Shown here: piece by piece, positions 17,264 through 43,609 of the stretch
Position numbering within the stretch: position 1 is the stretch's first letter
How the letters are laid out: each line of letters starts with the position of its first letter
Source: Syntrophobacterales bacterium
GTDB lineage: Bacteria > Desulfobacterota > Syntrophorhabdia > Syntrophorhabdales > Syntrophorhabdaceae
Reading direction: 5' to 3'
DNA length: 43,728 nt
Assembly: GCA_031274925.1 (NCBI GenBank)
Contig: JAISPL010000042.1
Span: 1-43,728, forward strand
The notes under the pieces: model-generated
Seen by the model: only the letters and a program-made list of their open reading frames with translations
Database searches by the model: none
Told to the model about the DNA's origin: nothing
Made by a program: the position numbers and the translations under genes

Positions 17264-18484
17264 GTGGATGAGGGCGCATTCTTGGACGAGGCTGTGAATA
17301 CCTGTTTTTCGGCCCGCAAGGTGCCCGAAGCCATTAAGGGGCTCGTCTATCAGATTGCATCAGGTGTTGTCAGGCAAAAGATCTATCTTGACTGGGTCCT
17401 TGAGAAGCTGATCGACAGGGAGGCAAAAGGGGATACCAGACATCTTCTCTTGATCAGTCTCTACCAGATTGCATTTATGAAAAAAGCGCACTACCACGTG
17501 GTCAAAGAAGCGGTGGAGTTCGCGAAGAAGCAAAAAGGCGCGAAGGTTGCCAACTTTGTTAATGCCGTATTGAGGCGGTTCGTCAGGGAAAGAGAGCAGA
17601 TGACCTATCCTGAAGACCCTGTTTGCAGACTTTCCATCTCCCATTCTTTTCCTGAATGGATAGTTGAAAGGTGGAGAAACAGGTTTGGAGGGAAGGAGAC
17701 TGAAAGACTTCTGACTCTCCTTAATGAGCCGCCCTCGTTCGCGGTGAGGATCAATTTGGAAAGGATATCGAAAGAGGATGTCATTAGGGAACTCAAAGCG
17801 CAAGGAATCAAGCCATCGCCGGGGAAGTTGCTTGATTCGGCCCTTCGCGTGGACAAACTCGGCCCTGTTCTGGTGTCCCGTCTTTTTGAGGAGAAACTTG
17901 TAAGTATTCAGGATGAGACGTCCCAACTCGTGACTTCCGCGGCTGAACCGGGGAAAGACGATCTTGTACTTGATGCGTGTGCTGGTCTTGGAACGAAGAC
18001 AGGGCAGCTCATGGAATCAAGTGCCGGACCGGTAATAGTGGCTATGGATAACGATATAAGGAGACTCAGGCTCATTCCGAAAAAGGCGAATGTCGTTGCG
18101 GGGGACGCCCTCAGGGTTCCATTCAGAAAAGGATTGTTCGACATCATAGTTGCCGACGCCCCATGCTCGTCTCTCGGCATCATAAGGAAGCATCCAGAGA
18201 TCAAATGTCGCAGGAAAAAGGAGGATGTGATACGTTTCGGCAATTATCAGCTAGATTTATTGAAGAGTCTGTGGGATAACCTCAGGCAAGGGGGGCGTAT
18301 GGTGTATAGCGTATGCTCGTTCGAACCAGAAGAGACAGTGGAAGTCTTGACGCGGTTTGGAAAAGAGAGAGAAATTATTCTCGAAAGACCTTTCTCTTTT
18401 GGTGCCAACGAAGGATATTATTTGTCCCTGCCTCAGGAAACGGGTATGGATGGATTTTTTATTGCAAGGTTTAGAAAAGCATGA
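17264..18484 (+). CDS. rsmB: 16S rRNA (cytosine-967-C5)-methyltransferase
   Basis: RsmB methylates C967 of 16S rRNA with SAM. The protein has an N-terminal NusB-like RNA-binding domain (about 1-125) and a C-terminal Rossmann methyltransferase with SAM motif LDACAGLGTKTG, DAPCSSLGIIRKHP (catalytic cysteine) and YSVCSFEPEE (second cysteine). The first canonical start is GTG 17264, but it has no usable ribosome-binding site and cuts the first NusB helix. The frame is open from 17174 and reads AALRAISLQIIKDVDEG just before the GTG, as expected for RsmB. No ATG/GTG/TTG lies in that stretch; ATC 17207 sits 9 nt after GGAGG. The last codons overlap the PASTA gene by 4 bp. Confidence 0.92.
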   Translation: MDEGAFLDEAVNTCFSARKVPEAIKGLVYQIASGVVRQKIYLDWVLEKLIDREAKGDTRHLLLISLYQIAFMKKAHYHVVKEAVEFAKKQKGAKVANFVNAVLRRFVREREQMTYPEDPVCRLSISHSFPEWIVERWRNRFGGKETERLLTLLNEPPSFAVRINLERISKEDVIRELKAQGIKPSPGKLLDSALRVDKLGPVLVSRLFEEKLVSIQDETSQLVTSAAEPGKDDLVLDACAGLGTKTGQLMESSAGPVIVAMDNDIRRLRLIPKKANVVAGDALRVPFRKGLFDIIVADAPCSSLGIIRKHPEIKCRRKKEDVIRFGNYQLDLLKSLWDNLRQGGRMVYSVCSFEPEETVEVLTRFGKEREIILERPFSFGANEGYYLSLPQETGMDGFFIARFRKA

Positions 18485-19185
18485 AGTGGACGAGAGGTAT
18501 CATTTATCTGATAACGCCTGTGGCAGTCTTCTTTCTCTCGTCATATATTACGGTAAATGTCCTTTTAAAGTCAGGAGTTACTGTGGTATGTCCAGACGTG
18601 AGAGGGCAGAAGATTGAAGAGGCAAAACATATTGTGGAAGGCAAGGGCCTTTCCCTGAGTGTCGCCAGATATGAGCCTAGAAGTGACGTTCCTTACGGAT
18701 ATATTACGGTTCAGAAGCCAGAGGCAAATATTACCATAAGAAAAGGCCGCGTGGTTAATGTGCTCGTGTCCGAAGGACCTCAACTTGTGGAGCTTCCTGG
18801 TATAATAAACGAGTCGCTTGAAGAGGCTGAAAAGGCGTTGAAAGAGAAGCAGCTCGAAGTGGAAAAGACTGTTTATGTGCCAAACAGGAAGGTGGGTCAG
18901 GTGATTGCCCAGGTTCCCGGTGCCGGCACGAAAATCCTGGAAGGAGCCACGGTTACTTTGTTTGTAGGGCGGGAACCTGAGACATATTATCTGATGCCGG
19001 AAATCAGGGAACCGGAGGTGGGGGCGCTCATTGAAGAGCTGGACAGTAAAAAGATCAAATACAGGTTGCTTTACGGAAAAGAGGAGCCCGCTCTTCTGGT
19101 TATAGCTCCAAAGGTGGTTGCCACGCCGCCGAAATCTATCTTTAGCGGCGACGACAATATAATCATAAACTCAAGCGGAGGATAA
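18481..19185 (+). CDS. Membrane-anchored PASTA-domain protein
   Basis: A 234-aa protein with one N-terminal membrane helix (about 7-29) and an extracytoplasmic part made of PASTA repeats: CPDVRGQKIEEAKHIV... (about 36-97), VELPGIINESLEEAEKAL... (about 99-163), and a third, weaker unit (MPEIREPEVGALIEELD..., about 170-220). PASTA domains bind peptidoglycan or muropeptides. In Gram-positives they are usually fused to Ser/Thr kinases or penicillin-binding proteins; here there is no kinase or transpeptidase domain. The start overlaps rsmB by 4 bp (ATGA) and rpe begins 1 bp after its stop. A periplasmic peptidoglycan-binding role is inferred. Confidence 0.85.
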   Translation: MKWTRGIIYLITPVAVFFLSSYITVNVLLKSGVTVVCPDVRGQKIEEAKHIVEGKGLSLSVARYEPRSDVPYGYITVQKPEANITIRKGRVVNVLVSEGPQLVELPGIINESLEEAEKALKEKQLEVEKTVYVPNRKVGQVIAQVPGAGTKILEGATVTLFVGREPETYYLMPEIREPEVGALIEELDSKKIKYRLLYGKEEPALLVIAPKVVATPPKSIFSGDDNIIINSSGG

Positions 19186-20846: not shown

Positions 20847-22235
20847 TCACTGCGATTTACGGTTTCTGGACGAGGGGATGCGAAGCTCTTCTCTGTACTT
20901 GGCCGCAGTTCTCCGGGCAATCTTTATGTTGTGGGATTTCTTCAGGACGGAGACAATCTCATCATCGGTGAAAGGCTTTGCCTTGTTCTCGTCTTTTATG
21001 ACCTCGGCGATGATATCCATGACGACGTTGGTGGAAAGCTCATTTCCTTCTTCCTTTCCGATACCCGTGGGAAAGAAAAATTTCATCTCATAGATGCCGT
21101 GGGGAGTACTAATATACTTATTTGTAGTGATTCTGCTTACCGTCGACTCGTGCATGCCTATGTCTTGTGCCACGTCTTTGAGAATTAACGGCTTGAGTGC
21201 CTTCAGGCCTTTTTCGAAGAATCCGGTCTGGAAAGAGACTATGCTTTTTGCCACAAGGTAGAGCGTCCGCTGACGCTGCTGGAGGCTTTTGATGAACCAT
21301 TCCGCCTGTTTGACTTTCTGCTTTATGTACTTCCTGTCCTCGCCATTCGTACTTTTATTCGCGTAGAGCTCTATGTAATGGCTGTTCACATGGAGTTCGG
21401 GTATGTCTTCCTCATTTAAGAAAACATCAAATTCACCCTCTTGTTTTGCCACGTAAACGTCGGGTATCATATAAAAGACATGGTCATCCCCGAAGTTTCT
21501 TCCGGGCTTCGGATCATAGTTCTTGATTTTTTCTATGAGCGACTTTACGAGATCCACGGGGAACCCTGTCTTTTTGACAATATCTTTGATATTGCCTTTT
21601 TCGACCAAATCAAAGTAATTGATGAGAAAATTTTCAAGAAGCGGATCTTTTTCTGATTCCATTCTGCACTGAATCAATAGACATTCTCTGAGATTCTGTG
21701 CTCCGACACCTGGTGGATCGAGTTTCTGGATTTTAAGTAGGATTTTCTCCAACCCCTCGACTGAAAATCCAGAGGCGCTTGCTATCTCGGAGATGGGATA
21801 TGCAAGATATCCATTGTCATCTATGTTCTCTAGTATCCATTCAGCAACGATCCGTTCTTCTTGGGTGACATCGGAGAGGCCTATCTGCCACCTCAGGTAA
21901 TCCCTGAGGTTGGATGTCTTGCTTACCATGTTTTCGTAATCAGGATAATTTCTTTCCTCAAAGTTTGCATATTCGGAGGATATCTCTTCGGAAGCCGTAT
22001 ATAGTTCAAGCCACTCGGTCATGTCCTCTTTTTCTTCAATCGGTTCTTCTTCAGTCTGCTCCTGGATTGATTCCTCCGGTTCTTCTTCTTTTATTTCGAG
22101 GACAGGGTTTTCATTTATCTCAAGTTCTATCGCTTCCATTAACTCCAACTGAGATAACTGCAGGAGCTTTATGGCCTGCTGAAGCTGCTGCGTGAGTATA
22201 GGTGAAAGCCTCTGAGTCTGTCTAAGCCCCAACAT
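20847..22235 (-). CDS. rpoN: RNA polymerase sigma-54 factor
   Basis: RpoN directs transcription from -24/-12 promoters activated by NtrC-type enhancer-binding proteins. The 462-aa protein has the glutamine-rich activator-responsive region I (LRQTQRLSPILTQQLQQAIKLL), a very acidic region II (about 50-85), the core-binding domain, a helix-turn-helix (MHESTVSRITTNKYI) and the RpoN box ARRTAAKYRE near residue 440. Length is normal. The start overlaps lptB by 14 bp, the conserved lptB-rpoN junction. No recognisable -24/-12 promoter or activator gene is in the window. Confidence 0.97.
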   Translation of the reverse strand: MLGLRQTQRLSPILTQQLQQAIKLLQLSQLELMEAIELEINENPVLEIKEEEPEESIQEQTEEEPIEEKEDMTEWLELYTASEEISSEYANFEERNYPDYENMVSKTSNLRDYLRWQIGLSDVTQEERIVAEWILENIDDNGYLAYPISEIASASGFSVEGLEKILLKIQKLDPPGVGAQNLRECLLIQCRMESEKDPLLENFLINYFDLVEKGNIKDIVKKTGFPVDLVKSLIEKIKNYDPKPGRNFGDDHVFYMIPDVYVAKQEGEFDVFLNEEDIPELHVNSHYIELYANKSTNGEDRKYIKQKVKQAEWFIKSLQQRQRTLYLVAKSIVSFQTGFFEKGLKALKPLILKDVAQDIGMHESTVSRITTNKYISTPHGIYEMKFFFPTGIGKEEGNELSTNVVMDIIAEVIKDENKAKPFTDDEIVSVLKKSHNIKIARRTAAKYREELRIPSSRNRKSQ

Positions 22236-22965
22236 TAATGTTGAATTCCTCTCCTAAATAGATTTCCCTTACTATTTTGTCTTTTGCTACTCTCTCCGGG
22301 GTTCCTTCGAGAAGCACCTTTCCATTATTCACCACGTAGGCTCTGTCACATATCGGTAAAGAATCTCTTACATTATGATCTGACAGTAATATGCCGATCT
22401 TCTTGCTGCGCAGGCCGTTGATTAATTTCTTCAGGTCTGAAACCGAGATGGGGTCGATTCCCGAGAAGGGCTCGTCGAGTAGCACGAAATGTGGGTTGGT
22501 CATGAGAGCCCGTGCTATCTCCAACCTCCTTCTTTCTCCGCCGGACAATGAGTCGGCATTATTCCTGGCCAGATGGTCCAGTTTGAATGTTTCGAGAAAG
22601 TCCTGCACTTTATGGTCCATCAACTCGCGATCTTCTTCTTGGAACTCAAGTATGGCCTTGAGATTGTCCGCGACGGTCATTTTTTTGAATATCGAAGGCT
22701 CCTGGGGCAAGTAGGTAATTCCTTTCCTGGCCCTCATAAACATGGGCAGGGAGGTGATATCTTCGCCGTCTAGGAGAATCTTTCCGCCATTTGGTTTTAT
22801 GAAGCCTATCACCATGTAGAAAGTTGTTGTTTTCCCCGCGCCGTTCGGCCCGAAAAGACCCACTGTCTCCCCTGTATTTATCTGTAAATCAATGCCGTCC
22901 ACTACTTTCCTTGAACCATAAGTTTTGAACAGACCTTCTGCTGAAAGCGTCGCGACCCCGTTCAT
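22222..22965 (-). CDS. lptB: LPS export ABC transporter ATPase
   Basis: LptB drives lipopolysaccharide extraction from the inner membrane with LptFG. The 247-aa ATPase has Walker A GPNGAGKTT, the Q-loop TYLPQEPSIF, signature LSGGERRRLEIARAL and Walker B FVLLDEPFSGIDP; the SGIDP end is characteristic of LptB. It overlaps the LptC/LptA gene by 4 bp and rpoN by 14 bp. The LptF and LptG permeases are not encoded in this window. Confidence 0.96.
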   Translation of the reverse strand: MNGVATLSAEGLFKTYGSRKVVDGIDLQINTGETVGLFGPNGAGKTTTFYMVIGFIKPNGGKILLDGEDITSLPMFMRARKGITYLPQEPSIFKKMTVADNLKAILEFQEEDRELMDHKVQDFLETFKLDHLARNNADSLSGGERRRLEIARALMTNPHFVLLDEPFSGIDPISVSDLKKLINGLRSKKIGILLSDHNVRDSLPICDRAYVVNNGKVLLEGTPERVAKDKIVREIYLGEEFNINVGA

Positions 22966-23876
22966 CGTCTATCTATCCTCATTTTCGGTTTGTTCACTGA
23001 AAATTTTTCTGCATTCACGTTATAGATTATTGATTCTCCACCCATATCAATTTTATCTTTCGTAACCTGTGGAGCGCCTGTCATCACGACTTTTTCGTCT
23101 TTAAAATGATACACTGCCTTGTCGCTTTTCGCAATAGCGCCCTTTGATGCCAATCGTACATTCCCCACTGCGTCAACCTTTTCCACCTCATCATTTTTGT
23201 TGATGAGATGGAGTTTATCACATACAAGATCCATGTCCTTGCCTTTCATGGTAACCTCGTTTTCCAGGATATAGACGCTATCCTTCACGGAATAGAAGAA
23301 CCTGTCGGAACTGAAGTTGTAACGTCCTTTGGCGCTCTCAATAAAGCCGGCCACATTCTTATGGATTCTTATTGTCTGAGCGTTCGTGTCCGCATACAAT
23401 CCTATCCCTTTCAGATCCAGTTTTGTCCCTTCTATGGCCACTGGGGCTTCTGTACGGGTAAAACCTCTCTTAAAGTCAAAATCCATATACTTCGTTACGA
23501 GCTTATACTCATTTTTATAAAGGATAACCACATCTTCCATAGCCCCGTTTTCCTGATCTGTATCCATTCTCCCTTTTGAGCCGTTGAAGAATACGGTTGT
23601 ATCAGGCTTGGGTTTATATTGCCCTTCTATGACCTCCATTTCGACCACGGGTTTGTCGATATATTTTCGGGCGATTTTCGCCTTGATCTCCCAATCTACA
23701 GTCCCCTTGCTTTCTCCTGAATAATGGACATCCTTGAAGACTATGGCCTTTGCCGCCTCCTCTACCTTGGGTGGAGCCACCCTGTGAGGTTTGTTGAAGA
23801 AGAAGTAAAGGGCAAGCGCCAATCCGGCGAGGATAACCGAGCAGGCAATATATACTGTCAGGTCTCTGTTCTTCAT
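22962..23876 (-). CDS. lptC: LptC-LptA composite LPS export protein
   Basis: LptC and LptA form the periplasmic bridge that carries LPS from LptB2FG to the outer membrane. From ATG 23876 the protein is 304 aa: an N-terminal membrane helix (about 6-27), an LptC-like beta-jellyroll (about 45-170: VHYSGESKGTVDWEIKAK..., RGFTRTEAPVAIEG), and a further OstA/LptA-like jellyroll (about 175-300: VYILENEVTMKG, VEKVDAVGNVRL, KVVMTGAPQVTKD). Separate LptC and LptA are each about 170-190 aa, so both modules appear to be in one chain. A longer frame opens with ATG at 23942. No separate lptA follows; lptB overlaps by 4 bp. Domain limits are by eye. Confidence 0.78.
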   Translation of the reverse strand: MKNRDLTVYIACSVILAGLALALYFFFNKPHRVAPPKVEEAAKAIVFKDVHYSGESKGTVDWEIKAKIARKYIDKPVVEMEVIEGQYKPKPDTTVFFNGSKGRMDTDQENGAMEDVVILYKNEYKLVTKYMDFDFKRGFTRTEAPVAIEGTKLDLKGIGLYADTNAQTIRIHKNVAGFIESAKGRYNFSSDRFFYSVKDSVYILENEVTMKGKDMDLVCDKLHLINKNDEVEKVDAVGNVRLASKGAIAKSDKAVYHFKDEKVVMTGAPQVTKDKIDMGGESIIYNVNAEKFSVNKPKMRIDRR

Positions 23877-23960
23877 AACATTCGAGCAATTTCCGTGATA
23901 CGTACCCATTGCTGTCGGCTTACGGCGAGGTACGTCTGGCATTTTAAGCCATCCGGCGGT

Positions 23961-24925
23961 CTATACTATTTTTACCCTCAGGAGGTCATGGATATGGATG
24001 ATCCCGATGGGTTTTCTCTCCCGGTCTTTTTCGACAACGAAGAGAGATGTGATAGAAAATTCCTCCATCTTTTTCAGTGCATATGCAGCCAGGGCATCCT
24101 CTTTTATCCCTTTTGGTTTGCCGGTCATCACATCATTCGCCTTTTTAGAGAGCAGGTTGTCATATCTCTCGATTGCTCTTCTCAGGTCGCCATCCGTAAT
24201 GACGCCCACGAGATCGCCGTTTCCGTTTACTACGCCGGCAACCCCGAGCCGCTTTGAGGTAATCTCAAGAATCACGTCCTTCATGAGGCTGTCCTGATGT
24301 ACTCTAGGAACAGCTTCCCCAGTATGCATAAGATCTCCCACCTTAAGAAGCAATTTTTTCCCTAATGACCCGCCGGGGTGGAGAGAGGCGAAATCTTCAA
24401 GCTTGAATTCATTCTTTTGCATCAATGCTACTGCGACTGCGTCTCCTAGGGCCAGTGCTGCGGTGGTGCTAGATGTCGGCACAACATTGTACGGGCATGC
24501 CTCGTCAACCTTTACGTTCAGAATTATATTGGCACAGTTCGCGATTGTTGAATTGGCGTTTCCAGTCACCACTATCGTTTCAAGATCCATTCTCTTTATC
24601 CAAGGGAGGATCTTTACCACTTCCTCCGTCTCGCCGCTATTGCTCACGATGAGAAGCACATCTTCCCTCTGGAGCATACCCAGGTCACCGTGGAGGGAAT
24701 CGCCGGGGTGTAAAAAGACCGCGGGCGTACCCACGCTCGAAAGGGTGGAAGCAATTTTTTTGCATATGAGTCCCGATTTTCCCACACCGAGGACCACAAC
24801 TCGGCCTCTACACGCATGGATTGCATCTACGGCTCTGTCGAACGTCTCATCGAGAGCCTCCATTACCTGGAGTATCGCTTTCGCCTCTTTCCTTAAAACT
24901 TCCTTTCCTGTATCCAGAGGAGTGG

Positions 24926-24929
<4 letters not shown>
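23961..24929 (-). CDS. kdsD: D-arabinose 5-phosphate isomerase, KdsD/KpsF family
   Basis: KdsD makes arabinose 5-phosphate from ribulose 5-phosphate, the first step of Kdo synthesis for LPS. The 322-aa protein has an N-terminal SIS domain (about 35-170: LGVGKSGLI, SNSGETEEVV, VPTSSTTAALALGDA) and a C-terminal pair of CBS domains (about 205-322). It overlaps kdsA by 4 bp. Rpe, encoded nearby, shares its ribulose 5-phosphate substrate. The kdsC phosphatase that usually sits between kdsD and lptC is missing here; only about 84 bp separate the two genes. Confidence 0.94.
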
Positions 24930-28559
<3,630 letters not shown>

Positions 28560-40270: not shown

Positions 40271-41536
40271 CTATTTTTGTTCTTGATAAAACAGTTTCTT
40301 AAGCTCTCTCATCAGGGCGATATTCTCCAGGTGCCCGGTCTGTTTTGCCGATATTTTCCCGATTATCGGACGGTTGAGGAGGTATGTGTCGCCAATGACA
40401 TCCAGTATCTTATGTCTTACAAATTCATCCTCGAACCTTAACTTCGTATTCACCACTCCATCGTCGCTTAAGATTATCACATTCGCCATAACGTTGTCGA
40501 TTCTGCCCCCCTGGCCTATTTTAGCCAGGCGTCCGAAATCCTTTATAAAACCGAACGTTCGTGCAGGAGCGATATCCCTCACAAAATCGGCCGTGTCTCC
40601 TGTGAAATGGTACCTTTGTGTCCCGATGGGTTTCCCCTGTTCCAAGGTATAATCGATTTCGAATACATCGGACGGTTCAATGGACAGATATTGGGAATTA
40701 CTCAGATTCGGTAGCACGATTTTTTCACGTATGGCGACAGGGTCCAGTCCTTCCCGCTGCTCCAAAACGCCCGCCTCCTCTATCTTCTTGCATATCTCAA
40801 TGGCGGATCCGTCAAAAATAGGAATCTCTTCGCTCACCTTTACGAGGAGGTTGGTAATCCCGTACATGTGGAGCGTGGCAAGGAGGTGCTCAATTGTCTT
40901 TATAATGCAAGTTTTTCCTTTGACCGATGAGGAGAATCCCACGGAATAGACATAGTCAATATATCCGTGTATGCGCTCGCCGTCGGGTATGTGCTCAAAG
41001 ACTATGCCTGAATTCTCGGGCATGGGAAGGAGTATCATGCCTGTCTTTACGCCTGAGAAGAGGCCTGTGCCATATACGACGATGCTCTTTCCGATTGTTT
41101 TCTGGGCACGTATATTCTGGCCTTTCGATATCTTGAGCCCCACATCGTTCGACGGACTTTCCGGTTTGTACTCTCCTGCCAGACTCCGCAGGATCACTTC
41201 AAGGACCTTGTCAATGGAGAGAGGTTTTTCGAGGAAGTCATAAGCGCCAAGCTTTACCGCCTCGACTGCGGTAGATATTGTGCCGTGCCCGGACATGACG
41301 ATTACTTTGGCGTCTTTGTCCTTCTCTCTTATCAGTTTCAGCGCCTCAAGGCCGTCCATCCCGGGCATCCAGATGTCGAGGAATATGACTTCTGGTTTTT
41401 CCTTTTCGAACACGGAAAGCCCTTCTGTGCCGTCGACGGCCTTCAATACCTGAAAACCTTCATCAGACAGGATGGAAGAGAGGCTTTCGCGTACATTTTT
41501 TTCATCGTCAATGATCAGGACCTTAGGCATGGCCAT
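40271..41536 (-). CDS. lpxC: Response-regulator receiver fused to LpxC deacetylase
   Basis: One 421-aa chain. Residues 1-122 are an NtrC-like receiver: acidic pair D10/D11, phospho-acceptor D54 in FLDIWMPGMDG, S82 in MSGHG and K104 in LEKP. After a linker (about 123-146), residues 147-415 are a full LpxC, the zinc deacetylase of UDP-3-O-acyl-GlcNAc and first committed step of lipid A synthesis. Its catalytic residues are present: E216-H217 (IEHLLA), H375 and D379 (VRHKILDVIGD), and H402 (QTGHLENI), matching E78/H79, H238/D242 and H265 of E. coli. ATG 41536 or 41530 both fit. No histidine kinase is nearby. Regulation of LpxC by phosphorylation is my inference. Confidence 0.95.
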   Translation of the reverse strand: MAMPKVLIIDDEKNVRESLSSILSDEGFQVLKAVDGTEGLSVFEKEKPEVIFLDIWMPGMDGLEALKLIREKDKDAKVIVMSGHGTISTAVEAVKLGAYDFLEKPLSIDKVLEVILRSLAGEYKPESPSNDVGLKISKGQNIRAQKTIGKSIVVYGTGLFSGVKTGMILLPMPENSGIVFEHIPDGERIHGYIDYVYSVGFSSSVKGKTCIIKTIEHLLATLHMYGITNLLVKVSEEIPIFDGSAIEICKKIEEAGVLEQREGLDPVAIREKIVLPNLSNSQYLSIEPSDVFEIDYTLEQGKPIGTQRYHFTGDTADFVRDIAPARTFGFIKDFGRLAKIGQGGRIDNVMANVIILSDDGVVNTKLRFEDEFVRHKILDVIGDTYLLNRPIIGKISAKQTGHLENIALMRELKKLFYQEQK

Positions 41537-41708: not shown

Positions 41709-41787
41709 CGGGGCGTGGCGCAGCATGGTTTAGCGCGCTTGCCTTGGGAGCAAGAGGTCGCTGGTTCAAATCCAGTCGCCCCGACCA
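41709..41787 (+). tRNA. tRNA-Pro (anticodon TGG)
   Basis: The acceptor stem CGGGGCG pairs with CGCCCCG; the anticodon stem-loop CTTGC-CTTGGGA-GCAAG carries TGG; the T-loop is GGTTCAAATCC. CCA is encoded (41785-41787). It stands alone, followed by a terminator hairpin. Confidence 0.96.
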
Positions 41788-41800
41788 TAATCCCAGGTAT

Positions 41801-41825
41801 AGCCACTGGAAGGACTCCAGTGGCT
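41801..41825 (+). terminator. Intrinsic terminator-like hairpin after tRNA-Pro
   Basis: A perfect 10-bp stem (41801-41810 with 41816-41825) around a 5-nt loop, 14 nt after the tRNA CCA end. The T-run is weak, only TTGAAAA follows. Confidence 0.5.
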
Positions 41826-41954
41826 TGAAAACTAAGGCATTAAGTTCAATATTACGGTATATGCCGTTATCAAACCCATTATGGCCGTGAACAGCTATCC
41901 TGCGAAGAAGAACTAGGGAAAAGCCGCTTCATGGCGCTCAAACAGCGGTGTAGC

Positions 41955-42047
41955 CCGGAAGTATCCACATGGCAGACCGTCTCCCGAACATATTTGACAG
42001 TGCACGGGCATTCATTGCATAGCCGGAAGTATCCACATGGCAGACCG
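41955..42047 (+). repeat. 25-bp exact direct repeat, two copies
   Basis: An identical 25-bp unit, starting CCGGAAGTATCC and ending GGCAGACCG, is at 41955-41979 and 42023-42047, with 43 bp between copies. TAGC precedes both, with one extra C in the first. It has no internal symmetry. Two copies are too few for CRISPR; it could be a duplication or binding-site pair upstream of the secreted-protein gene. The rest of 41826-42163 shows nothing else. Confidence 0.7.
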
Positions 42048-42163
42048 GCTTGGAGGCAATCTGCCATAGGCTATATAGTCTTTGTAAACCTTAAAGGAGC
42101 AGGCAAAAAAGTCGCCGCAGAAAAGAATAATGAGAGACCTGGTCCTAAATGGAGGATATTGAT

Positions 42164-42562
42164 ATGGGTAGAATAGCGCTTATTTCAATGTTTTTGTTCA
42201 CCGTGTTGCCATTAGGTCTATACGGAGCCGAAGGTCCATACGGAGCAGGCACGGATTGTTGCATGTGCGAGACCAGAGACGACGGCTTGACCACTGAGTG
42301 CAGCTCGTTTGAATGCAGACCGCTGCCCGTGGTTTATGCCAGCCTGGCGGGCGCTGATAAATTTCGGAGCGTCGCCATGGTTTTGGCGCAGATAAAGTAT
42401 TCAGACAGTCTTATAAATTCTGTTCACAGGAATCCGCTGGTCCTTAAGGCCGCCGTATTGTTTCCTGCCGCCGCTGACGCAATGCTCTTACCCGAAGGAT
42501 TTGAATATCGTATTCGCGAGTCTCCTTCTCAATCCTCCATGGGAACGGGTTCCCGCATATGA
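42164..42562 (+). CDS. Small secreted cysteine-rich protein, probably truncated
   Basis: A 132-aa protein of unknown family. It begins with a clear signal peptide (MGRIALISMFLFTVLPLGLYGAEG, cleavage near residue 22-24), then a cysteine cluster CCMCETRDDGLTTECSSFEC (about 33-52), then a mostly hydrophobic region. Some cysteines could bind metal or form disulfides in the periplasm. The ATG at 42164 has GGAGG 8 nt upstream. The C-terminal RIRESPSQSSMGTG looks unlike folded protein, and coding-like sequence continues in the other two frames to 42797, so the gene is probably frameshifted. Confidence 0.6.
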   Translation: MGRIALISMFLFTVLPLGLYGAEGPYGAGTDCCMCETRDDGLTTECSSFECRPLPVVYASLAGADKFRSVAMVLAQIKYSDSLINSVHRNPLVLKAAVLFPAAADAMLLPEGFEYRIRESPSQSSMGTGSRI

Positions 42563-42797
42563 GATCAGGAGACTTCGAAAAGGCCTCTATAATAATGAGT
42601 TCGGGTCACGCCTTTACCACACAGGAAAGCGCTCTGTATCTTTTTGAGGGGGAAGGCACCACAAAATAGACAGCGACGATTCCGGATGCAGACACATCAA
42701 AGATATCAAGACCACGGATTCCGCCATAACGGTAAATTATGTAAAGACCCCTGGTTCCTCCCGCCCCAAAGAGGTAACTGCAACGCTGACCAGGTAG
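42559..42797 (+). pseudogene. Frameshifted continuation of the secreted-protein gene
   Basis: After the stop at 42560-42562, a frame starting at ATG 42559 reads MRSGDFEKASIIMSSGHAF...LYLFEGEG and stops at 42669; from 42648 the third frame reads IDSDDSGCRHIKDIKTTDS...KEVTATLTR and stops at 42795-42797. The protein-like character changes frame at the TTTTTGAGGGGG tract, a likely indel site. Two frameshifts or sequencing errors would restore one protein of about 210 aa. Confidence 0.4.
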
Positions 42798-43031
42798 GAA
42801 AAAGGATGGAGTATTCTCTTTTTTCTTGACTCAATACACTCAGTCTGTTACATTTGCCACGGAAACTTATGTCTTATGGCAGGCTAACCGGTAAAAAGCT
42901 TATTTCCTTCGCGTATTACAGGTAATTGAGCTGAAAAAAACCGTTGAGTGAATATGATTAAAACTGGTGACGAGTAGATATTAGTATCGAAAGACCAGCC
43001 GTGCCCATAAGGATGGCGGGCCACGAATCTC

Positions 43032-43060
43032 TTGACATATGAGAGGATTTGGTTTATAAT
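43032..43060 (+). promoter_or_regulatory. Perfect consensus promoter of the tRNA-tuf operon
   Basis: TTGACA (43032-43037), exactly 17 nt, then TATAAT (43055-43060): full consensus at both boxes with ideal spacing, as expected for a tRNA/tuf operon. Transcription would start near 43067, 38 nt before the first tRNA. The preceding stretch 42798-43031 contains no gene that I recognise. Confidence 0.85.
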
Positions 43061-43104
43061 CTATTGTTGTTTTTGCGGAAAATTTGTACTGTAATTATAA
43101 TTTC

Positions 43105-43177
43105 GCTGGTGTAGCTCAATCGGCAGAGCAGCTGATTTGTAATCAGCAGGTTGCGGGTTCGAGTCCCATCACCAGCT
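43105..43177 (+). tRNA. tRNA-Thr (anticodon TGT)
   Basis: Acceptor GCTGGTG pairs with CACCAGC; the anticodon arm CTGAT-TTGTAA-ATCAG carries TGT; the T-arm has GGTTCGAGTCC. CCA is not encoded. It is the first of four tRNAs before tuf, the same Thr-Tyr-Gly-Thr order as upstream of tufB in E. coli. Confidence 0.96.
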
Positions 43178-43180
43178 CAT

Positions 43181-43265
43181 GGAGAGGTTCCCGAGCGGCC
43201 AAAGGGGGCAGACTGTAAATCTGTTGTCTCAGACTTCGGAGGTTCGATCCCTCCCCTCTCCACCA
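43181..43265 (+). tRNA. tRNA-Tyr (anticodon GTA)
   Basis: Acceptor GGAGAGG pairs with CCTCTCC; anticodon loop CTGTAAA carries GTA; a long variable arm is typical of tRNA-Tyr. CCA is encoded at 43263-43265. It begins 3 nt after tRNA-Thr. Confidence 0.96.
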
Positions 43266-43360
43266 TAATGTGTATCAAAGAGCCTTAAGGTGAAAGGTCA
43301 GAAAACGGCTTCACCGCAGGCTATATATGTTTATTGTAGCTATGTGTCGCAGAAGAAAGT

Positions 43361-43399
43361 CCCCGGCAGGACAGCGTGAGTTTATGTGATTCGCCGGGG
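43361..43399 (+). other. GC-rich hairpin between tRNA-Tyr and tRNA-Gly
   Basis: CCCCGGC (43361-43367) pairs with GCCGGGG (43393-43399) around a 25-nt loop, in a 156-bp spacer between tRNAs. There is no T-run. It may be a processing signal; the resemblance of the preceding GAAGAAAGTCC to RNase P RNA is superficial. Confidence 0.4.
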
Positions 43400-43421
43400 G
43401 TCGAAGATGGAATTAAAGAAG

Positions 43422-43498
43422 GCGGGAGTAGCTCAGTTGGTTAGAGCATCAGCCTTCCAAGCTGAGGGTCGCGGGTTCGAGTCCCGTTTCCCGCTCCA
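43422..43498 (+). tRNA. tRNA-Gly (anticodon TCC)
   Basis: Acceptor GCGGGAG pairs with TTCCCGC (last pair G-U); anticodon arm CAGCC-TTCCAA-GCTG carries TCC; the T-arm has GGTTCGAGTCC. CCA is encoded at 43496-43498. Confidence 0.96.
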
Positions 43499-43534
43499 AA
43501 AAACAGGGTGGGTTGAAGCTTGATCCGCTCATTT

Positions 43535-43609
43535 GCCCGCGTAGCTCAGTGGTAGAGCACCTCCTTGGTAAGGAGGTGGTCACCGGTTCAATCCCGGTCG
43601 TGGGCTCCA
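43535..43609 (+). tRNA. tRNA-Thr (anticodon GGT)
   Basis: Acceptor GCCCGCG pairs with CGTGGGC (one G-U); anticodon arm CTCCT-TGGTA-AGGAG carries GGT; the T-arm has GGTTCAATCCC. CCA is encoded at 43607-43609. It lies 24 nt before tuf. Confidence 0.96.

What the first reader, a model, noticed from the sequence alone, without database searches (positions are those of the whole stretch)
22962..23942. LptC and LptA modules in one chain, and kdsC missing from the cluster
The usual order kdsD-kdsC-lptC-lptA-lptB is reduced to kdsD-[LptC+LptA]-lptB. The 304-aa protein has the length and repeats for two jellyroll modules, so part of the periplasmic bridge would be covalently tied to its inner-membrane anchor. 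KdsC is absent between kdsD and this gene.
Basis: partly seen in the sequence, partly recalled or inferred. Interest (0 to 1): 0.5.

Follow-up and report, generated by a model that had tools for sequence, protein, structure and literature searches.

The report
LPS bridge tethered at both membranes
In one order of anaerobic bacteria the normally free-floating carrier protein LptA, which helps move lipopolysaccharide to the cell surface, appears only as a part fused to inner-membrane LptC and as a second part fused to outer-membrane BamD, which would turn the loose link into a fixed bridge.

Summary
Confirmed and extended. Window 22962-23876 (minus strand, 304 aa) encodes an inner-membrane helix, an LptC beta-taco and an LptA-like beta-taco in one chain: two independent HMM matches, a confident AlphaFold model (pLDDT 87.5), and separate structural matches of the two halves to solved LptC and LptA. 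kdsC is absent from the cluster, and no KdsC-grade match exists in the genome. This is not a local accident: 43 of 44 genomes of the order (Syntrophorhabdales by contig titles) carry the fusion, in the order pyrG-kdsA-kdsD-[LptC-LptA]-lptB-rpoN, with a constant-length junction. No free LptA was found in any. The module on BamD is closer to ordinary LptA; the one on LptC is divergent and faster evolving. Best reading: an Lpt bridge with no soluble component, anchored at both ends. LptC-LptA fusion also occurs in another family of the phylum, and BamD-LptA in several. I found no published description in the searches named. New variant of a known machine; function untested.

The parts
24926..25738 (-). 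kdsA, KDO-8-phosphate synthase (270 aa)
   Evidence: NCBIfam TIGR01362 376.6 bits, cut-off 314
23961..24929 (-). kdsD/kpsF arabinose-5-phosphate isomerase (322 aa); the usual next gene kdsC is missing
   Evidence: TIGR00393 308.8 bits, cut-off 203.7; 84-base gap to the next gene
22962..23876 (-). LptC-LptA fusion, 304 aa (longest ORF 22962-23942, 326 aa)
   Evidence: Pfam LptC + LptD_N; start chosen from 42 relatives; AF2 pLDDT 87.5, pTM 0.72
23796..23867 (-). N-terminal inner-membrane helix, residues 4-27
   Evidence: helix 4-27 in the model; hydrophobic and conserved in the alignment; membrane location is inferred
23334..23747 (-). LptC beta-taco module, residues 44-181
   Evidence: strands 44-181; model 42-188 to LptC 6mit_C Z 13.6
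22965..23333 (-). LptA-like beta-taco module (A1), residues 182-304, joined to LptC by a tight turn
   Evidence: model 182-303 to LptA 2r1a_C Z 12.3 and LptH 4uu4 Z 11.8; profile hits solved LptA, E 4.7e-8; junction length constant in 42 of 43
22222..22965 (-). lptB ATPase (247 aa), start overlaps the fusion's stop by 4 bases
   Evidence: TIGR04406 351.7 bits, cut-off 240
20847..22235 (-). rpoN, next gene of the conserved cluster
   Evidence: TIGR02395 444.8 bits, cut-off 277.35; synteny

Best explanation
This is an LPS-transport (Lpt) bridge without a soluble link. Shown: LptC and an LptA-like module (A1) are one chain with an N-terminal membrane helix; a second LptA module (A2) sits on the C-terminus of the cell's only BamD, a predicted outer-membrane lipoprotein, behind a low-complexity linker of 40-186 residues; no free LptA is found in the order; LptB, LptF, LptG, LptD and the Kdo transferase are present in this genome. 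Inferred: LptB2FG pushes LPS into LptC, which passes it without a protein-protein gap into A1 because the two grooves are one rigid piece; A1's free C-terminal edge docks the N-terminal edge of A2; A2's C-terminal edge docks LptD, with the BamD linker keeping A2 at the outer membrane near where LptD is folded. Bridge length would thus be set by gene structure (LptC-A1-A2-LptD) rather than by LptA oligomerisation. KDO-8-phosphate must be dephosphorylated by a phosphatase other than KdsC.
For: Two modules by HMM, fold and solved-structure match. The order LptC(N)-LptA(C) matches the E. coli contact order: LptC C-terminus to LptA N-terminus, LptA C-terminus to LptD (passages of PMC6286764). Junction of constant length in 42 of 43, one residue longer in 1, as expected for a rigid continuous groove. 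Fusion in 43 of 44 order genomes. BamD-LptA with both parts in 41 of 44, and it is the only BamD at E<=1e-6 in G000. At most 3 LptD_N matches per order genome; those listed lie in the fusion, BamD or LptD. Kdo transferase in 42 of 44; LptF/LptG pair. Monomeric LptA partly supports LPS transport in E. coli (section 5 of PMC5575297), so a long LptA polymer is not strictly needed. In another family (f16) an LptC-LptA fusion also occurs, and its genome G056 has only two LptD_N matches, the fusion and a 734-aa LptD-size frame.
Against: No experiment. The A1-A2 and A2-LptD contacts are inferred; no complex was modelled. A1 is under the LptA equivalog cut-off and evolves faster than A2 (A2 more identical in 657 of 666 genome pairs), so it may not carry LPS as LptA does. 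In G008 the last ~45 residues of A1 are not recognisable. BamD-LptA could serve LptD assembly, not the bridge. LptE was not detected in this genome. The genomes are in general draft assemblies: absence of a free LptA in each is weaker than the shared absence.
Confidence: 0.62

Rival explanations
1. The BamD-borne module is the real LptA of the bridge; the LptC-borne module (A1) is a derived extension of LptC that only lengthens or stiffens the inner-membrane end, or is a decaying leftover of the old lptA.
For: A2 groups with ordinary LptA across a 100/100 branch that excludes A1. A2 scores 65.7 bits on LptD_N against 36.5 for A1. A1 evolves faster; the end of A1 in G008 is not recognisable.
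Against: A1 is kept in all 43 fusions, at full length in nearly all, with a rigid junction, and folds as a complete taco matching LptA. Decay would not leave an intact open frame down to 33% identity.
Confidence: 0.2
2. BamD-LptA is an assembly factor: its LptA module captures the N-terminal taco of LptD while BAM folds the barrel (as LptE and LptM act at BAM), and the bridge itself uses only LptC-A1 to LptD.
For: Fusion to BamD places the module at the folding site. LptD is folded at BAM and LptM associates there (passages of PMC12644819). Family f10 has BamD-LptA besides a free LptA, and f16 genome G056 has LptC-LptA while its BamD frame is only 224 aa, so the two fusions are separable.
Against: A2 is the module most like transport LptA; a linker of up to 186 residues gives reach beyond BAM.
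Confidence: 0.15
3. Assembly or sequencing artefact, or a fusion that is cut after translation so that a soluble LptA is released.
For: The genomes are mostly draft; no proteomic data.
Against: 42 of 42 other loci show the same open frame; the junction has a constant length and no long linker to cut. No signal peptide of its own is visible before A1 (sequence).
Confidence: 0.03

Closest known systems
LptC (PF06835, TIGR04409), E. coli/Vibrio LptB2FGC component
   Same: N-terminal membrane helix, beta-taco, gene next to lptB; model matches 6mit_C and 6mjp_C
   Different: does not end after the taco: a second LptA-like taco follows with no linker
LptA/LptH (PF03968, TIGR03002)
   Same: taco fold matching 2r1a and 4uu4; genomic place between lptC and lptB
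   Different: not a free secreted protein; under the LptA equivalog cut-off; covalently on LptC, with a second copy on BamD
BamD/YfiO (PF13525, TIGR03302)
   Same: the contig C57 protein is over the BamD cut-off (194.6 vs 81.4 bits) and has a lipoprotein-type N-terminus
   Different: carries a long linker and an LptA module at its C-terminus
LptD N-terminal taco and LptM/LptE at BAM (E. coli)
   Same: precedent for an outer-membrane-tethered taco and for lipoproteins that join LptD at BAM
   Different: here the tethered taco is on BamD itself

Membership tests
LptC (TIGR04409/PF06835) | score over curated cut-off | tested here: met
   50.2 vs 38 bits; 44.8 vs 21
LptC (TIGR04409/PF06835) | N-terminal single membrane helix and periplasmic beta-taco | tested here: met
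   helix 4-27, taco 44-181; 6mit_C Z 13.6; predicted, not measured
LptC (TIGR04409/PF06835) | receives LPS from LptB2FG | not testable with these tools
   needs crosslinking
LptA (TIGR03002, equivalog) | score over equivalog cut-off | tested here: not met
   LptC-borne module 47.1 vs 71.7; BamD-borne module 68.0 vs 71.7
LptA/LptD_N domain (PF03968) | score over gathering cut-off | tested here: met
   36.5 bits and 65.7 bits vs 20.4
LptA (TIGR03002, equivalog) | free, secreted periplasmic protein | tested here: not met
   both modules lie inside larger frames with a membrane helix or lipoprotein-type start
LptA (TIGR03002, equivalog) | taco fold of LptA | tested here: met
   model 182-303 to 2r1a_C Z 12.3, 2.5 A over 121 residues; BamD-borne module not modelled
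BamD (TIGR03302) | score over cut-off, lipoprotein signal | tested here: met
   194.6 vs 81.4; N-terminal LTAC motif in G000; acylation not tested
KdsC (TIGR01670) | any gene over cut-off in this genome | tested here: not met
   best 16.1 vs 106.95

The most novel reading that the evidence does not exclude
In these bacteria LPS delivery and outer-membrane-protein assembly are one physically coupled machine: the BamD-borne LptA module makes the Lpt bridge dock at the BAM complex, so that LptD folding, bridge completion and LPS insertion happen at one place, with the bridge fixed at exactly two LptA units and tethered at both membranes.
Probability: 0.3. Interest if true: 0.8.

Novelty: new variant of a known kind. 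Interest (0 to 1): 0.6.

Why it matters
Whether LptA works as a fixed bridge or could also act as a soluble shuttle, and how many LptA units span the periplasm, has been argued mainly from E. coli. An order in which every LptA module found is anchored to one membrane or the other is a natural test case: a shuttle is excluded by construction and the number of modules is fixed by the genes. The BamD fusion also hints at a direct mechanical link between the BAM and Lpt machines, two essential systems usually studied apart. It warns annotators too: 'lptA missing' in such genomes does not mean that LPS transport is missing.

Tried and rejected
Chance ORF or assembly fusion: rejected by 42 of 42 relatives.

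KdsC elsewhere: in the order only G038, G039 and G042 (3 of 44) have a match over the TIGR01670 cut-off. These and the near-cut-off matches in G001, G004, G005, G008, G011, G016, G037 and G041 are ~180-aa HAD genes, mostly in tandem. The six such proteins scanned from order genomes (L095 x2, L086 x2, L087, L088) all score higher on TIGR02726 (phenylphosphate carboxylase delta) than on TIGR01670, though far under the TIGR02726 cut-off. In L095 they lie between two ORFs that I read as UbiD-type carboxylases (not tested). G030 and G036 are a HAD domain on phosphoheptose isomerase. So no good KdsC candidate; which phosphatase replaces it was not found. The best weak hit in this genome is a SerB-like HAD-IB protein.

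LptE as a possible loss: matched in 39 of 44 order genomes but not in this one; not pursued.

A paper search on KdsC absence gave nothing on topic by title. The Syntrophorhabdus/lipopolysaccharide search likewise.

VIA-align rows for Morn1, junctophilin and radial-spoke chains (Z 11-13) were taken for other long single-sheet proteins and not followed.

Full report
What is there. The minus-strand ORF at 22962-23942 is 326 aa. In 42 related proteins the conserved start corresponds to ATG 23876, giving 304 aa. Pfam places LptC at 36-201 and the LptA/LptD_N domain at 212-312 of the longer ORF, both over their cut-offs. NCBIfam LptC is over its cut-off; NCBIfam LptA matches but stays under its equivalog cut-off. 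Upstream are kdsD and kdsA, downstream lptB and rpoN. The kdsD-fusion gap is 84 bases, and the lptB start overlaps the fusion stop.

Fold. AlphaFold2 with the window protein and 25 relatives gave pLDDT 87.5 and pTM 0.72: a helix at 4-27, strands from 44 to 181, then strands from 184 to 301 with a tight turn between the blocks. Foldseek's best matches are LptC, LptH/LptA and LptD. In the second look, model residues 42-188 align to LptC 6mit_C (Z 13.6) and residues 182-303 to LptA 2r1a_C (Z 12.3) and LptH 4uu4 (Z 11.8). A sequence profile of the family hits solved LptA chains only with its C-terminal part (best E 4.7e-8, positions 187-296) and, weakly (E 0.013), solved LptC with positions 125-181. 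So there are two tacos, LptC then LptA-like.

How far it is conserved. Among 60 relatives (with the window's own genome, 44 of its order, G000-G043, and 16 other families of the phylum), every order genome except G029 has an LptC match, in a frame of 297-332 aa. Fetched loci show the fusion in 42 of 42, with pyrG-kdsA-kdsD-fusion-lptB-rpoN wherever the contig is long enough (G016 shows a split pyrG frame; G043 shows no kdsD, kdsA or pyrG on the stretch held), and never a kdsC. The C-terminal half of all 43 fusions matches a profile of the BamD-borne LptA module at E below 1e-3. In the 14 of 16 outgroup loci that I laid out, 12 have separate LptC and LptA ORFs, G056 is fused and G057 was not resolved; 7 of 14 keep kdsC directly before lptC. 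Over 395 genomes of the phylum the fusion profile matched 311; in the rows listed (the list is cut), full-length matches (1-303 or 1-304) occur only in the 17 order genomes of that sample, and elsewhere the two halves hit separate stretches, in separate frames except in f16. Named contigs place the group: titles include Syntrophorhabdus sp. PtaU1.Bin058, PtaB.Bin047 and PtaB.Bin184 and Syntrophorhabdaceae bacterium SKW35; several equal G-handle contigs in length (for example 66,548 bases, G031). The order name Syntrophorhabdales is my inference from these titles; other titles say only Deltaproteobacteria, Syntrophobacterales or Syntrophus.

The second LptA. The genome has three LptD_N matches: the fusion, LptD on C15 (714 aa) and a 553-aa protein on C57. 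The last is BamD: TIGR03302 194.6 bits against a cut-off of 81.4, Pfam YfiO at 28-219 and LptD_N at 429-533, with a lipoprotein-type start and a 175-residue linker, 15% proline and 34% charged. It is the only YfiO match at E<=1e-6 in the genome. Of 44 order genomes, 41 have BamD and LptA in one frame; G021 is cut by a contig end; G025 and G027 gave no such frame (presence in G025 and G027 also missing). No order genome has more than three LptD_N matches, and those listed fall into the fusion, BamD and LptD classes of frame. I therefore find no free LptA in the order, with the reserve that the assemblies are drafts.

Which module is which. In a tree of 42 modules the LptC-borne modules form one clade (100/100), cut off from both the BamD-borne modules and ordinary LptA, which lie together across a 100/100 branch. 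Only 10 of 39 inner branches reach the starred level, several 'free' rows are partial, and the long stem of the LptC-borne clade may exaggerate its isolation. Over 37 genomes with all parts, mean pairwise identity is 54.6% (LptC part), 51.9% (LptC-borne LptA), 62.7% (BamD), 66.7% (BamD-borne LptA) and 76.6% (LptB); the BamD-borne module is the more conserved of the two in 657 of 666 pairs. The junction region has the same length in 42 of 43 proteins and one residue more in the other: a rigid join, not a flexible tether. G008 is an exception in quality: its last ~45 residues are not recognisable.

Other lineages. Four genomes of family f16 (G056, G093, G128, G156) have 348-363-aa LptC+LptA chains (Pfam confirmed for G093 and G056). 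The G056 module lies across the 100/100 branch from the order's clade (row mislabelled 'free_G056', long branch), so a second origin is likely but not proven. BamD+LptA occurs in families f10, f11, f15, f23 and f44 and, by matches in one frame, in G053 of f13; f10 keeps a free LptA as well. So the pieces are not unique to this order; what I saw only here is both together with no free LptA.

Does the cell make LPS? KdsA and KdsD, LpxC, the Kdo-transferase domain (this genome; 42 of 44 order genomes), LptF/LptG and LptD are present. LptE is matched in 39 of 44 but not in this genome. KdsC is not found here; in the order only 3 of 44 have a match over the cut-off, in tandem HAD pairs that resemble phenylphosphate carboxylase delta subunits more than KdsC. 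Another phosphatase must act, unidentified.

Mechanism. In E. coli the LptC C-terminus contacts the LptA N-terminus, and the LptA C-terminus contacts LptD (passages of PMC6286764). The fusion hard-wires the first contact in the right order. The BamD linker enters the second module at its N-terminal, inner-membrane-facing end, so it must fold back along the module; 40-186 residues allow that. Monomeric LptA partly supports growth in E. coli (section 5 of PMC5575297), so a short, fixed bridge is reasonable. LptD is folded at BAM with LptE, and LptM joins there (passages of PMC12644819), which makes BamD a sensible outer-membrane anchor, or alternatively points to an assembly role. The transport steps are inference.

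Literature. Searches for LptA/LptC with fusion, fused, chimera, OstA/domain architecture, diderm evolution, natural fusion, and for BamD with LptA gave no title, abstract start or passage seen that describes a natural LptC-LptA or BamD-LptA protein. Papers opened, by passages found: PMC5007114 (two ~200-aa OstA proteins as LptA/LptC in diderm Firmicutes), PMC10353723, PMC12644819, PMC5575297 (58, and one named section in 77), PMC8871954, PMC6286764, PMC9938171. Subscription papers, preprints and domain-architecture databases were not searched, and such fusions may well be listed there unremarked.

Verdict. Observation confirmed, interpretation supported and enlarged. Architecture close to certain; double-tether mechanism about 0.6; new variant of a known kind.

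Noticed in passing
window 40271-41536 (-): LpxC (PF03331, 231.5 bits, residues 145-413) fused behind a response-regulator receiver domain (PF00072, 110.1 bits, residues 6-115): lipid A synthesis may be under phospho-relay control. Not compared with relatives.
   Followed up: partly
L268:975-2171, L267:438-1739 (G326, G112, family f36); similar starts in L269 (G222) and L260 (G345): In these families LptA is a 380-434-aa protein with an N-terminal extension containing an 'IAVLPFE'-like stretch before the LptA taco; in G326 it weakly matches LpoB (PF13036).
   Followed up: partly
L270:1359-4169 (G100) and L273:220-2838 (G063), family f23: BamD-LptA proteins of 937 and 873 aa; the G100 protein also carries a C-terminal Cds6_C NTF2-like domain (PF24125).
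   Followed up: partly
L095:1468-2565 and similar tandem pairs in other order genomes: Two KdsC-like HAD genes in tandem between large ORFs that look like UbiD-type carboxylases, scoring best on the phenylphosphate carboxylase delta model; likely aromatic-degradation genes that can be mistaken for KdsC.
   Followed up: partly
L098:892-1980 (G036), L099:1465-2580 (G030): KdsC-like HAD domain fused to a phosphoheptose isomerase (GmhA) domain.
   Followed up: no
window 18481-19185 (+): Stand-alone protein with PASTA domains and no kinase domain, between an rsmB-like ORF and an rpe-like ORF (names by reading).
   Followed up: no
window 41709-43609: Five tRNA genes (Pro, Thr, Tyr, Gly, Thr) near the window's end.
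   Followed up: no
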